The translations under genes were made by a program, and so were the position numbers. From Bacteroidota bacterium (GTDB lineage Bacteria; Bacteroidota; Bacteroidia; Chitinophagales; Saprospiraceae), in contig CAUJEY010000265.1 of assembly GCA_963169325.1 (NCBI GenBank), positions 1 to 32,102 on the forward strand: a DNA stretch of 32,102 bases, read 5' to 3'. The notes under the pieces were generated by a model. The model did not search any database. It saw only the letters and a program-made list of their open reading frames with translations, and was not told the origin of the DNA. Positions 24,763-32,102 of the stretch are shown here, piece by piece; the first letter of the stretch is position 1; every line of letters begins with the position of its first letter.

Positions 24763-24838
24763 AGGGATGTCGCGCAGTCCGGCAGCGCATCCCGATTTCA
24801 GATCGGGAGGGTCCCAGGTTCGAATCCTGGTATCCCGA
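24763..24838 (+). tRNA. tRNA-Pro-like gene with TCA anticodon and 6-bp anticodon stem
   Basis: This is a 76-nt copy of the tRNA-Pro body: the acceptor arm (except base 1), D-arm GCGC...GCGC, variable GGGTC, T-arm and discriminator A are the same. Differences are A1 instead of C1 (unpaired with G72), C at position 9, and a replaced anticodon arm TCCCGA-TTTCAGA-TCGGGA, which gives a 6-bp stem and a 7-nt loop with TCA at 24798-24800, complementary to UGA. The Pro-tRNA-synthetase determinants G35/G36 are lost. It could be an opal suppressor, a decayed tRNA or a mobile-unit copy; function is unproven. It has its own terminator. Confidence 0.6.
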
Positions 24839-24842
24839 CAAG

Positions 24843-24873: not shown

Positions 24874-25125
24874 ATGGCATACCTATATATTTTATTCTCA
24901 CCCTCGGTCGATAAATATTATGTCGGCCACACTACGCTACCACCTGAAGAACGGTTACGAAAACACCTTTCCAACCATGACGGCTTCACTGCCAAAGCCA
25001 AAGATTGGACGATTGTTCACGTGGAGTCTTTCCAAACCAAAGACCTTGCAGCTGCCAGAGAGCGGCAGATAAAATCCTGGAAATCAAAAATCAAAATCAT
25101 CAAACTTATTCAAAGTGCGATGTAG
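24874..25125 (+). CDS. Small GIY-YIG nuclease (stand-alone)
   Basis: An 83-residue protein that is essentially a bare GIY-YIG domain of the YhbQ/UPF0213 type. LYIL (residues 4-7) and YYVGHT (15-20) are the two GIY-YIG strands, R28 is the likely catalytic Arg (PEERLRKH), and E63 in ARERQIKSWK is the metal-binding Glu; all are present. Such nucleases cut DNA and occur as repair-type proteins or as the catalytic part of homing endonucleases; no extra DNA-binding domain is fused here. Its last three codons (GCG ATG TAG) are also the acceptor stem and bases 8-10 of a tRNA-Pro fragment, so its stop codon is supplied by tRNA sequence. It lies between two tRNA-like copies. Confidence 0.85.
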   Translation: MAYLYILFSPSVDKYYVGHTTLPPEERLRKHLSNHDGFTAKAKDWTIVHVESFQTKDLAAARERQIKSWKSKIKIIKLIQSAM

Positions 25126-25166
25126 CGCAGTCCGGCAGCGCATCCCGATTTTGGATCGGGAGGGTC
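25119..25166 (+). pseudogene. Truncated tRNA-Pro-like copy (5' two-thirds)
   Basis: Bases 25119-25166 repeat the tRNA-like gene from the end of the acceptor stem through the D-arm, the same 6-bp anticodon stem TCCCGA/TCGGGA and the variable loop GGGTC, then stop matching. The loop is TTTTGGA (TTG in the anticodon position, or TGG if the loop is shifted by one). The T-arm and 3' acceptor are missing, so it cannot make a tRNA. It overlaps the GIY-YIG 3' end and marks the boundary to the AT-rich island. Confidence 0.85.
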
Positions 25167-28064: not shown

Positions 28065-28847
28065 TTATTGTTCTAGGTGTTCAACAATTAGTTCAAAGCA
28101 TTTATTTATCACTTCTTCGTTACTGAGGAACATATATTCATTTGTTGACCACCCAACTTCCATGTTTTTATTTACGGTTGGTAGAAAGGTAATGATTTTC
28201 AACAGTTTAGGCTCTTCAAACCCAAAGTGAGCGAAACTCCCATGAAATACCATCGGTTTGTCACAAAGTCGGAATGCCATCATTGCCCCATCTAATGAAT
28301 AGCGAGATTTAATTTCCCAAGTTATAAGAATACTCACCTTACCTTCAAAATTTATTATCCTTGTCGATTCATACTGTGAGTCCTGCAAGTAGGCTTTGCG
28401 CAGATTCGCCTTCTCGGAAAAGTCATCCAAAGATATGGGTAATTGCACAAAAAGGTCATTTACCACTTCCATAACTGCTTGAATACCACCTGTAGATGAC
28501 ATAAAATGAGTTGCTTGTCGCTCAAACTCTTCTTCTTCTTTGGCTGTTCTTAATCTTTCGCTGAGTAAATCAACATCAGTTACACGACTGTTATTTCGCC
28601 TATGTTCGTAGATAATATTTAGAAGTGCATAGGAAATCCTAGTGGCCTCCACATTTGACTCATTCTGTGTAATTAGTCCCAAATGGGTTTGTTTGTCGTT
28701 ATGTTTCTTTCTAGACAGTAAAAGGCTTATACTTTTCTGTATATCGTCATTTTTTAATGTCCTACCTCGAAGATACTCAAGAGCATCTTCGAGAGAACTA
28801 CTTGCAACCAGTTCTTCTGTCTTTGCGATTATATCTTCGTTTATCAT
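28065..28847 (-). CDS. EAD11-like effector-associated domain protein
   Basis: A 260-residue protein. Residues ~17-82 (LEDALEYLRGRTLKNDDIQ, SLLLSRKKHNDKQTHLGLITQNESNVEATRISYALLNIIYE) resemble the effector-associated domain EAD11, a small helical adaptor that couples bacterial conflict proteins to one another. Residues ~110-260 form a domain I do not recognise (FEGKVSILITWEIKSRYSLDGAMMAF, FHGSFAHFGFEEPK). No nuclease, TIR or NTPase motif is visible, so it may be an adaptor or carry an unknown effector. Its partner could be the AbiTii-like gene or the membrane protein in the same island and orientation. The start is ATG 28847, 27 bp after a terminator hairpin, so it is probably separately transcribed. 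It ends in TAA. Confidence 0.6.
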   Translation of the reverse strand: MINEDIIAKTEELVASSSLEDALEYLRGRTLKNDDIQKSISLLLSRKKHNDKQTHLGLITQNESNVEATRISYALLNIIYEHRRNNSRVTDVDLLSERLRTAKEEEEFERQATHFMSSTGGIQAVMEVVNDLFVQLPISLDDFSEKANLRKAYLQDSQYESTRIINFEGKVSILITWEIKSRYSLDGAMMAFRLCDKPMVFHGSFAHFGFEEPKLLKIITFLPTVNKNMEVGWSTNEYMFLSNEEVINKCFELIVEHLEQ

Positions 28848-28868
28848 TATTAGTTCAAATTTGTTATT

Positions 28869-28901
28869 ATAAAAAAGGTGTCAGGAAATACCCGACACCT
28901 T
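28869..28901 (-). terminator. Terminator after the AbiTii-like gene
   Basis: AAGGTGTC (28875-28882) and GACACCTT (28894-28901) form an 8-bp stem. On the minus strand it is followed by a T-run. A closely similar hairpin sits at 29815-29844, as if the two were copies of one terminator module. Confidence 0.8.
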
Positions 28902-28919
28902 CAATTCTGTGAAGGCGAA

Positions 28920-29798
28920 TTACAGAACTTTCTGAATGAGATCAATTATTGCAGGTATTTGCAATTCAATTCCCTTCTCAAGGGACTTCTGCGCGACCTT
29001 ACCAACCCATGCAAATAATTTCTTTGTCTTTGAATCTTTATTCTCAGAAGCCTTAACAACATCTTCAAACTCTGTAATTTCTTCGGCTGGAACACCTAAG
29101 GTTCTGAGTTTTTCAGTCAATTCATTAATCGTCGTTTGACTTATTGTAATATGTTGGGTTTGCGTGACATTCTCACCAACACCAACATTGGTGTTATTGT
29201 TGGAGCCGTAAATATTGTTGTTAATAATTTGGCTTGCTTTTTTTCCCATATCCTTAGGAATGAAATTGTTTTCTAAATTAGGGAATGCATTATTCAATTC
29301 CAAAAGCGTGTCAAGCAGTTTTTGTTTTGTGAGGTTTAATACTTTATGGAATACAGACAATCCTATTTTCTTGTTTAACGAAATTAGTGAATAATCACCA
29401 TTAAATACTATTATTTCACGCATTTCTTCGGTAAATTGAGGCGACATTTGCATGTACACAAAATTACTATTTTTTGCGTTATCACGAGATAATACTTCTT
29501 CTATGGTATCAATACCCTGAGTAATGTGGTATATGTAGAAGTCAGCACCAAGTCCTATGCCATCTTGTATTGGCACAAACATTTCCCCACTAAAGTCTCT
29601 TACTTTAGCAACAGTTTCTGCTTCGGTGACCCTATAAGAAGGGCAATATTCTATATTATCATACCCCGATAATTCGTTGATAAGCCATTTTATAAAATTA
29701 TCATTATTAATTTGATGAGCAATTATTTTCGACCTTGTAAGGGCTTGTGATAGAGTAATTTTATCATGTGCCAAATCAGCAATTAAGTCCTTAATCAT
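28920..29798 (-). CDS. AbiTii-type abortive infection domain protein
   Basis: A 292-residue protein. Residues 1-~60 match the AbiTii pattern: LIADLAHDKITLSQALTRSKIIAHQINNDNFIKWLINELSGY, then YCPSYRV, where family members have an L..YR. segment. The central part (~60-185) is mixed alpha/beta. A low-complexity stretch, IINNNIYGSNNNTNVGVGENVTQTQ (about 190-215), with N/G repeats, precedes a helical tail with a charged region. AbiTii proteins are associated with phage exclusion, and this one is between the EAD11-like and a small hypothetical gene on the same strand. It has no TM or catalytic motif that I can name. Terminators flank both ends, so it forms its own unit. AT-rich; ends in TAA. Confidence 0.65.
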   Translation of the reverse strand: MIKDLIADLAHDKITLSQALTRSKIIAHQINNDNFIKWLINELSGYDNIEYCPSYRVTEAETVAKVRDFSGEMFVPIQDGIGLGADFYIYHITQGIDTIEEVLSRDNAKNSNFVYMQMSPQFTEEMREIIVFNGDYSLISLNKKIGLSVFHKVLNLTKQKLLDTLLELNNAFPNLENNFIPKDMGKKASQIINNNIYGSNNNTNVGVGENVTQTQHITISQTTINELTEKLRTLGVPAEEITEFEDVVKASENKDSKTKKLFAWVGKVAQKSLEKGIELQIPAIIDLIQKVL

Positions 29799-30371: not shown

Positions 30372-31625
30372 TTAGGTATCCTTTTTTAGCAACCAATTTA
30401 CTAAACTTCTTCTACTCAATTGAATAGCCTCCAAATGCCTTAAGTTTATTTCTTTAGTCTTATCTGTTAGATCAAAACTCATAAAATTTTCTCCATGTAA
30501 TAAGTATTCAGTATGTGTTATTTTAGAGCGAATATCGTAAATCGAATTATAAAATTTTTTAGCATCTTTTTGCTTAGAAACATATTTAAACAAAAATTCC
30601 CTAAACTTCGCTCCAACACCCCAAGTAGGTTTACCACATTTTTGACAGATACGAGAAGAAGATTTCAAAGATTTACACTGGTCACATTCATACTCTAAAA
30701 TCTCATCTCTGAATTCATAATTTACTAAAGTTTCGATACTTGAAACAGCAGAAAAAAAAGACAAACTTTTCATCGTGGAAAATAAATCTAAAGCATTGCA
30801 AATCTGATAAATAGCCGAGTCAACAACGTTTCGTTCTTTATTATTCAATGAGAAATATCTTTCAAGAATTAAATTAATAGTATGTGGGAGTGTGATCGGC
30901 TTTTGTATATTTTCAACTGGGTTATAGTAATAGTAAAAGTTTTGTTCATAAAATTTCACTTGCGGGAAATCTGGCTTTGCAAACTCTGATATTTGTAAAT
31001 CTTCTGAGATGCCAGGGTAATAATAATTCACTAATGACCACTGGCTTGGAGAGTTATTAATTTCATCCCTGTTTGAGTCGTTTACATCATCAGGAAAATA
31101 TTTTGTCCATTTAGCATCAACAACACGATAGTAAAAGAACCTATAATTAGATATGACTGAAAGTAGGTTAGTTATTTGAATTAACCTATTAAGTTGAGTT
31201 GACGCCTCTGACGCCCATTCGTTGAGATTTTGATAGTCAAACACTGTTACTTTGGCGTTATCTTTAGTGTCGTACCAAAACTCGATTATCAAGGGAATGT
31301 CAGATACATTACTTTGATTAGGAGCATTTTTAAGGTTTAATGGATAAATCTGAAATTCATCCTTGTACCTATACAAGCCTTTCAGTGGGGTCTTGGAAAA
31401 GATAATGGTGCGATAAAATTTCTTCAATGGCTCTGATTTCTTAAATTGATTTAATACGAATGCAAAATTAACCTTATCATGTGTACAATCCTCTGGGATT
31501 TCCATATTGTTGTCACAAAGTCCAGGGTACCAAATAGGTATATTCTCTTCTAATTGTAGACGCAGTAACTCATCTAAACTAAAAGGACCTTGCCAATTAT
31601 CTTTAAAATAGTAATACTTTTCCAA
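30372..31625 (-). CDS. GYF_2 / zinc-ribbon / HEPN protein (Apea-like)
   Basis: A 417-residue protein. The N-terminus (YYYFKDNWQGPFSLDEL, then IPIWYPG) looks like a GYF_2 domain. The middle (~60-260) is unrecognised and Tyr-rich. The C-terminal third is HEPN-like: a helical region (SIETLVNYEF) and RSKITH with R366 and H371, the R-x4-H motif of HEPN ribonucleases. It is interrupted by a zinc ribbon C314-x2-C317...C327-x2-C330 (CDQCK...CQKCGKP). HEPN proteins often cut RNA in toxin or defence systems. The start is TTG at 31625: an in-frame TAA lies three codons upstream, there is no ATG between, and the GYF-like motif begins at once. It lies 31 bp downstream of the DUF2958-like frame. Confidence 0.65.
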   Translation of the reverse strand: MEKYYYFKDNWQGPFSLDELLRLQLEENIPIWYPGLCDNNMEIPEDCTHDKVNFAFVLNQFKKSEPLKKFYRTIIFSKTPLKGLYRYKDEFQIYPLNLKNAPNQSNVSDIPLIIEFWYDTKDNAKVTVFDYQNLNEWASEASTQLNRLIQITNLLSVISNYRFFYYRVVDAKWTKYFPDDVNDSNRDEINNSPSQWSLVNYYYPGISEDLQISEFAKPDFPQVKFYEQNFYYYYNPVENIQKPITLPHTINLILERYFSLNNKERNVVDSAIYQICNALDLFSTMKSLSFFSAVSSIETLVNYEFRDEILEYECDQCKSLKSSSRICQKCGKPTWGVGAKFREFLFKYVSKQKDAKKFYNSIYDIRSKITHTEYLLHGENFMSFDLTDKTKEINLRHLEAIQLSRRSLVNWLLKKDT

Positions 31626-31656: not shown

Positions 31657-32010
31657 CTAAAGCCCTAACTCCTTCCGTCTGCACGGCGTGAACTCTGGGT
31701 CTTTTCTCCGTTGACCGCAAGTAATGTAGTCTTCAAATTCCTTAACAGAAAAATATCACCACTCAGATTCAAAGCCAAAAACATACCCAAAAAACTCCTC
31801 GCTGTCTTCGTACAATTCGGTGGCATACCGTTCTCGGTCAAGCACATCGGAAATGAACTTACAGACCACGATTGGATTTTCTGTGTGCTCTTGTCTGCCT
31901 AAAGTCCTAAACAAGTTCAACGTTTCTTCTCAAAGGAATTTTTCTCGTAACATCTCTTTTTCAATGGTTCGTAATGATTTTTGGCTGGCCCCAGTGTGGA
32001 TTAAAGCCAT
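31657..32010 (-). CDS. DUF2958-like protein with two in-frame TGA codons
   Basis: Read from ATG at 32010 to TAG at 31657, this frame has 117 codons with TGA at codon 27 (31930-31932) and codon 85 (31756-31758). It has no TAA, TAG or frameshift inside. The sequence around residues 46-92 (PIVVCKFISD, YATELYEDSEEFFGYVFGFESEW, then x, then YFSVKEFEDY) matches what I recall of DUF2958, a small family common on plasmids and integrative elements, where the segment reads E-L-G-Y-[FV]-S. The TGA at codon 85 falls on that conserved Gly. Downstream, FTPCRRKEL recalls the family's FTA-RK ending. In the standard code it would be broken twice. It is followed by the HEPN gene in the same direction. Confidence 0.55.
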
Positions 32011-32021
32011 ATAAAGAAAAA

Positions 32022-32067
32022 GGCAAAAGTTTAAGTTTGTGGTGCGAATCATAAACCAACTTTTGCC
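32022..32067. repeat. Short inverted repeat in the divergent gap at the window edge
   Basis: GGCAAAAGTT (32022-32031) and AACTTTTGCC (32058-32067) are a perfect 10-bp inverted pair with a 26-bp spacer. It lies between the DUF2958-like start (32010, minus) and a possible plus-strand start (32070). It could be an operator shared by the two genes, or the end of a mobile element. Confidence 0.6.
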
Positions 32068-32069
32068 CT

Positions 32070-32102
32070 ATGAGCATCGAGACACTCACGGACACAATAT
32101 TG
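32070..32102 (+). CDS. Possible gene start running off the window
   Basis: An ATG at 32070 opens a frame (MSIETLTDTIL) that is still open at the window edge. Only eleven codons are visible; I do not recognise it. It sits directly after the inverted repeat, divergent from the DUF2958-like frame. Confidence 0.3.
   Translation, partial: MSIETLTDTIL

What the first reader, a model, noticed from the sequence alone, without database searches (positions are those of the whole stretch)
31657..32010. DUF2958-like gene intact only if UGA encodes an amino acid, best read as Gly
A 117-codon frame has two TGA codons and no other defect, and ends in TAG. The TGA at codon 85 lies at the Gly of the family's E-L-G-Y motif (recalled from the family, not aligned here). 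A GGA-to-TGA change is a transversion, an unlikely route for simple decay. UGA = Gly is the code of Absconditabacteria (SR1) and Gracilibacteria. In the host-like part of the window TGA is a normal stop, so this gene seems to come from a lineage or mobile element with another code.
Basis: partly seen in the sequence, partly recalled or inferred. Interest (0 to 1): 0.88.

Follow-up and report, generated by a model that had tools for sequence, protein, structure and literature searches.

The report
Foreign-code gene in a Bacteroidota genome
A small gene in what looks like a Bacteroidota genome, and two relatives on other mobile DNA, read as whole proteins only under the altered genetic code of the tiny bacteria called Absconditabacteria, which suggests that genes cross between organisms that do not share a code.

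Summary
The native gene is probably 31953-31657, about 99 codons, TGA at native codons 8 and 66. Codon 66 is an invariant Gly; codon 8 is a Thr-like column, so the window's TGA codons alone do not prove Gly. The stronger sign was missed: CGA and CGG sit at the family's Trp-x-Trp columns. UGA=Gly with CGA and CGG=Trp is the published Absconditabacteria code. Two relatives fit it better: one on 'Microcystis phage Mwe-JY31' (plasmid-like), one in a genome of the window's genus (G798). Over three genes against 30 standard-coded homologues, TGA scores Gly +18.8 bits (next -9.1), CGA Trp +34.6 (Arg -21.3), CGG Trp +10.6 (Arg -14.9); in eight standard-coded controls CGA scores Arg +19.3. With recoded codons masked the three form a clade (98/95) inside a Bacteroidota clade. 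Testable neighbours look standard-coded. Best reading: mobile-element cargo that evolved under the Absconditabacteria-type code, now untranslatable in its host. No Absconditabacteria genome could be searched, so the donor is inferred.

The parts
31657..31953 (-). DUF2958-like gene, 98 codons plus TAG; open only if TGA is read as an amino acid; fits UGA=Gly with CGA/CGG=Trp
31930..31932 (-).
31756..31758 (-).
31834..31836 (-). CGA, native codon 40, first Trp column of W-x-W
31828..31830 (-). CGG, native codon 42, second Trp column of W-x-W (Trp in 24 of 24 aligned rows)
31962..32102 (.). Repeat that ends this contig and contig C211 identically, about 91% copy in C250; looks like an insertion-sequence end with an ORF start at 32072; begins 8 bp upstream of the probable native start
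   Evidence: identity as an insertion sequence is inferred
30372..31625 (-). Next gene downstream, 417 aa, TAA stop, no TGA inside, 8 TGG and 1 CGA; weak zinc-ribbon and GYF_2 matches below cut-off

Best explanation
The gene is a DUF2958-like cargo gene of a mobile element. It evolved in cells that read UGA as Gly and CGA/CGG as Trp, the code known from Absconditabacteria, and was later carried into the chromosome of a standard-code bacterium (by gene content Bacteroidota). In that host translation should stop after 7 residues, and a repeat that looks like an insertion sequence has landed 8 bp upstream of the start, so it is very likely a silent passenger. Shown: codon placement in three related genes, their common clade, standard-coded homologues and controls, standard-coded neighbours where testable. 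Inferred: Absconditabacteria as donor, the mobile element as vehicle for the window copy, lack of translation in the host. What DUF2958 does is unknown; it occurs on many plasmids and phages here.
For: Code test on three genes against 30 standard-coded homologues: TGA n=8 Gly +18.8, next Asn -9.1; CGA n=6 (one more in a gap column) Trp +34.6, Arg -21.3; CGG n=4 Trp +10.6, Arg -14.9; in 8 standard-coded controls CGA n=12 Arg +19.3, Trp -37.5. Same result with two genes and 24 homologues for TGA and CGA. Pfam DUF2958 score rises with the code: Mwe-JY31 45.8 bits (code 4), 51.9 (code 25), 60.1 (code 25 plus CGA/CGG=Trp); G798 32.2, 40.0, 48.2. Codons swap as synonyms between the genes: Gly16 column GGC/TGA/TGA, Gly57 GGC/TGA/GGC, Gly63 TGA/GGA/TGA, Trp39 CGG/CGA/CGG, Trp62 TGG/CGA/CGA (window/Mwe-JY31/G798). 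With recoded codons masked the three genes form a clade, 98/95. CGA and CGG=Trp with UGA=Gly is reported for Absconditabacteria (PMC8629427, passages). Neighbours: Mwe-JY31 DUF932 gene has 4 of 8 aligned CGA/CGG opposite Arg and none opposite Trp in a Tunicatimonas plasmid; G798 coupling-protein gene has CGA/CGG opposite Arg at several columns and none opposite Trp.
Against: No homologue from Absconditabacteria was seen, because no such genome could be reached. In the window gene alone Gly is not separated from Thr. Its CGA at native codon 3 lies in a mostly gapped column where 6 of the 9 rows with a residue have Arg, which favours Arg if that alignment is right. CGG at codon 82 fits neither Trp nor Arg. 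CGG in the two-gene test was undecided (Ile +0.5, Trp +0.1). The window protein stays below Pfam's DUF2958 cut-off (15.2 of 21 bits) even when recoded, and has a very long branch (2.61), so it may also be decaying. In the tree the three genes lie inside a Bacteroidota clade, which needs a way out to the other code and back.
Confidence: 0.8

Rival explanations
1. The window gene is an ordinary standard-coded DUF2958 gene that decayed by point mutation after the repeat inserted upstream.
For: Very long branch of the window gene (2.61); repeat 8 bp upstream of the probable start; one TGA in a non-Gly column.
Against: Sister genes in Mwe-JY31 and G798 carry CGA/CGG at the same Trp columns and TGA at Gly columns with an otherwise conserved sequence; CGA is two changes away from TGG; no frameshift, TAA or TAG inside.
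Confidence: 0.07
2. Assembly chimera or contamination with an Absconditabacteria fragment.
For: The gene lies 150 bp from a contig end in a 349-contig assembly; read coverage could not be checked.
Against: It is flanked by a repeat present on two other contigs of the same assembly and, 31 bp away, by a standard-coded gene; in G798 the like gene lies inside a 33,955-base contig that also holds a tRNA-Pro and standard-coded genes; Mwe-JY31 is an independent record.
Confidence: 0.05
3. The genes are read in place: the host or the element supplies tRNAs that decode UGA as Gly and CGA/CGG as Trp under some condition.
For: A tRNA with anticodon UCA lies at 24763-24839; the Mwe-JY31 and G798 genes look conserved.
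Against: That tRNA has a tRNA-Pro body with A73 and an A1/G72 mismatch, not the Gly elements listed in PMC8629427 (passage); 4 of 10 host-like genes listed in the window end in TGA and use CGG freely; no other unusual tRNA was found by ARAGORN on Mwe-JY31 or the G798 contig.
Confidence: 0.04

Closest known systems
Absconditabacteria (SR1) genetic code, NCBI table 25 plus CGA/CGG=Trp (Shulgina and Eddy 2021, PMC8629427; passages read)
   Same: UGA=Gly, CGA and CGG=Trp, low use of CGN codons, AGA/AGG for Arg
   Different: there it is a genome-wide code; here it is confined to a few genes inside standard-coded DNA
Phages of Gracilibacteria/Absconditabacteria also targeted by spacers of standard-code bacteria (Liu et al. 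2023, PMC10746230; abstract and sections 7-8 read)
   Same: mobile DNA shared between the two code domains; five of nine such Gracilibacteria phages had Bacteroidetes spacer matches
   Different: all nine of those Gracilibacteria phages read alike under both codes, and two of five such Absconditabacteria phages were wholly alternative-coded; here code-specific genes sit among standard-coded genes of one element
DUF2958 (PF11171)
   Same: W-x-W, F-G-[YFL]-V-x-G-F-E-x-E-[WL]-G-[YS]-F motifs, size, occurrence on plasmids and phages
   Different: open only under another code; window copy below the family cut-off
Alternatively coded phages in standard-code hosts, such as crAss-like phages with recoded stops (recalled, no call)
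   Same: code differs from that of the host
   Different: sense codons CGA/CGG reassigned too; plasmid-like element; no suppressor tRNA found

Membership tests
DUF2958 (PF11171) | Pfam score at or above the curated cut-off of 21 bits | tested here: not met
   window 15.2 bits with code 25 plus CGA/CGG=Trp, not listed with code 25 or code 4; Mwe-JY31 60.1 and G798 48.2 bits pass
DUF2958 (PF11171) | homology to genes annotated DUF2958 | tested here: met
   tblastn to a Halotia plasmid gene so annotated, 39% over 68% of the query; clade with Mwe-JY31 and G798 genes
Absconditabacteria code | UGA=Gly | tested here: met
   three genes together Gly +18.8, next -9.1; window alone inconclusive
Absconditabacteria code | CGA and CGG=Trp | tested here: met
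   CGA Trp +34.6, CGG Trp +10.6 over three genes; window alone Trp +9.6 against Arg -14.6, n=4
Absconditabacteria code | tRNA-Gly(UCA) and matching Trp tRNAs in the translating cell | tested here: not met
   none found on the window, the G798 contig or Mwe-JY31; the rest of the two genomes was not scanned, and the donor cell is unknown
Origin in Absconditabacteria | close homologue in an Absconditabacteria genome | not tested

The most novel reading that the evidence does not exclude
These are bilingual mobile elements: a standard-coded gene set (coupling protein, replication-relaxation protein, DUF932) that works in Bacteroidota, and a code-locked set (DUF2958, its neighbour, perhaps the Rep3 initiator and other TGA-bearing frames of the G798 element) that can be read only after transfer into an Absconditabacteria-code cell. 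The genetic code then acts as a host-specific switch rather than a barrier.
Probability: 0.2. Interest if true: 0.95.

Novelty: new variant of a known kind. Interest (0 to 1): 0.84.

Why it matters
A different genetic code is thought to shield a lineage from gene exchange. Here genes that make sense only with three reassigned codons, two of them sense codons, recur in standard-code DNA, which makes the code a tracer: any CGA/CGG-for-Trp gene found elsewhere points to contact with Absconditabacteria-type cells or their elements. It offers a direct way to find partners of these uncultured bacteria and to test whether elements cross a code border in both directions. I found no report of this in the seven paper searches made, read as listings apart from four papers of which I saw passages or sections.

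Tried and rejected
Pattern scans of viral contigs for TGA at the motif Gly codons: 0 hits each. Patterns for CGA/CGG at the Trp columns: 3 hits, unrelated by eye or without alignment; 23 hits, none aligning by tblastn; 0 hits. The recoded Mwe-JY31 protein P0003 found 44 IMG/VR loci, whose alignments show stops only near the end of two; one of the six search patterns (WTWYATEF) selects for Trp, so they were kept out of the code tests and used only in trees.

G495 hit with one TGA looked spurious in alignment. The Mwe-JY31 second frame (P0006 and its code-25 form) has no match in phages other than itself, in plasmids, viral contigs or 335 genomes. The G798 second frame P0004 has no match in plasmids or phages, no Pfam match (116), only weak PHROG matches (117); its I-G-G-W and N-Q-x-A-I-W look is recalled, not tested. 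Pfam does not separate code 4 from code 25 for the G798 Rep3 frame (Rep3_N 48.2 against 47.4 bits) or the PemK-like frame (47.0 against 48.0). The G798 coupling protein has no relative in the window's own genome. Mwe-JY31 coupling protein: one CGA/CGG column is Trp in one homologue and Arg in another, undecided. The UCA tRNA as a suppressor was rejected (see rivals).

Rows left out of the code tests: L085 (dropped), L086, L087, L153-L156 (never entered); one search used L152 for the same locus as L089. L153 (G667, 28% identity, no TGA) shows by eye one CGA/CGG at what may be the second Trp column; it was not tested and might be a fourth case or chance.

Full report
Observation. The frame at 31657-32010 lies on the minus strand: 117 codons, TGA at codons 27 and 85, TAG at the end, no TAA or TAG inside. 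The last 141 bp, 31962-32102, are identical to the end of contig C211 and about 91% identical to a stretch of C250, so codons 1-16 are a repeat that looks like an insertion-sequence end. The likely native start is ATG at 31953.

Family. Read with table 11 meanings at CGA/CGG, the protein finds distant relatives: 8 loci in genome contigs, 1 in viral contigs, 1 plasmid annotated DUF2958, and 1 phage record, Mwe-JY31, at 46% over 68% of the query. All 12 aligned sequences keep Gly at native codon 66 once UGA is read as Gly.

The second code change. The Mwe-JY31 relative is an unannotated stretch (L034 21280-21585, minus) with three TGA and, at the family's three Trp columns, three CGA; it has no TGG. 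The window gene has CGA and CGG at the two W-x-W columns. Absconditabacteria are reported to read UGA as Gly and both CGA and CGG as Trp (PMC8629427, passages). Reading the Mwe-JY31 gene so, the same tblastn search rises from 1 to 41 plasmid records (P0001 against P0003, two different query genes as well as codes).

Code tests. Against 24 standard-coded homologues, two genes: TGA (n=5) Gly +9.2 bits, next Asn -6.1; CGA (n=4) Trp +23.0; CGG (n=3) undecided, Ile +0.5 and Trp +0.1. With a third gene and 30 homologues: TGA (n=8) Gly +18.8, next -9.1; CGA (n=6, one more in a gap column) Trp +34.6, Arg -21.3; CGG (n=4) Trp +10.6, Arg -14.9; AGA/AGG (n=12) Arg +4.7; CGT/CGC (n=4) best Pro, Arg -5.8. 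In eight standard-coded Bacteroidota controls CGA (n=12) Arg +19.3 and CGG (n=2) Arg +6.3. Per gene, the window's TGA give Gly +0.4 against Thr +0.2, its CGA/CGG (n=4) Trp +9.6 against Arg -14.6. Against this reading, the window's CGA at native codon 3 falls in a gapped column where 6 of 9 residues are Arg. Pfam DUF2958 scores rise stepwise with the code for Mwe-JY31 (45.8, 51.9, 60.1) and G798 (32.2, 40.0, 48.2); the window gene reaches 15.2, below the cut-off of 21.

Other genomes. P0003 hit 6 of 395 genomes of the phylum sample, only the window's own with TGA, and 13 of 376 of the order sample, two with TGA: the window's own and G798 of the same genus. P0002 hit 4 of 199 of the family sample, where the one further TGA hit looked spurious. 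P0001 hit only its own genome among 247. The G798 gene (L157 9723-10019, minus) has TGA at Gly columns 16, 63, 78 and CGA, CGG, CGA at the three Trp columns.

Context. Mwe-JY31 holds a Rep3 initiator, ParA, a coupling protein, a resolvase, DUF932 and others: a plasmid-like element, not a proven phage. Its DUF932 gene has 4 of 8 aligned CGA/CGG opposite Arg and none opposite Trp. The G798 contig has a tRNA-Pro next to a replication-relaxation gene and a coupling-protein gene that end in TGA, with CGA/CGG opposite Arg or other residues but never Trp in the homologues compared. Several other G798 frames carry in-frame TGA, including one that matches Rep3 end to end across a TGA, but these do not tell Gly from Trp. 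Mwe-JY31 and G798 share coupling-protein and replication-relaxation relatives. In the window the island before the gene holds an AbiTii gene and an EAD11-domain gene; none of its genes resembles Mwe-JY31 or G798 apart from DUF2958, so that the window copy came on the same kind of element is inferred.

Tree. With recoded codons masked, the three genes form a clade (98/95) within a group of 13 rows (96/90) whose other ten rows are from the window's phylum or a Bacteroides plasmid. An earlier tree of 62 rows gave window plus Mwe-JY31 93/69. The window row has a long branch, 2.61; 104 or fewer columns were available.

Conclusion. The simplest account is one passage of a Bacteroidota-type DUF2958 gene into an alternative-code lineage, divergence there, and return on mobile elements at least into three replicons. 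Not shown: the donor, the direction, any function or expression. A bolder account, a two-set bilingual element, is not excluded. Related work: shared phages between the code domains (PMC10746230, sections 7 and 8), gene exchange between Patescibacteria and Bacteroidota (PMC12455944, passages), and a conjugation-type secretion system in Patescibacteria (PMC12102498, passages).

Noticed in passing
window 24763-24839: tRNA-like gene with anticodon UCA on a tRNA-Pro body, next to a tRNA-Pro and a GIY-YIG gene; a truncated second copy lies at 25119-25166. Only these two copies of the pattern in the genome.
   Followed up: partly
L157 12801-13352, 13414-14793, 18319-18708, 12209-12670 (G798): Further frames with 2-3 in-frame TGA beside the alternative-coded DUF2958 gene, matching Rep3 and PemK families in two cases; code not settled.
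   Followed up: partly
L157 10288-10611 (G798): Frame with TGA-TGA-CGA in I-G-G-W-like and CGG in N-Q-R-A-I-W-like positions, upstream of the G798 DUF2958 gene.
   Followed up: partly
L153 (G667): Distant DUF2958 hit with a CGA/CGG at what may be a Trp column and no TGA.
   Followed up: no
G798 contig C42, 24850-33955: Four long frames (637, 911, 591, 597 codons) with no TGA and only two CGA/CGG in all.
   Followed up: no
window 28065-29798: AbiTii gene and EAD11-domain gene in a low-GC island, a likely defence cargo.
   Followed up: no
PP438423.1: Record named Microcystis phage Mwe-JY31 looks like a plasmid (Rep3, ParA, coupling protein) and has an unannotated DUF2958 gene.
   Followed up: partly
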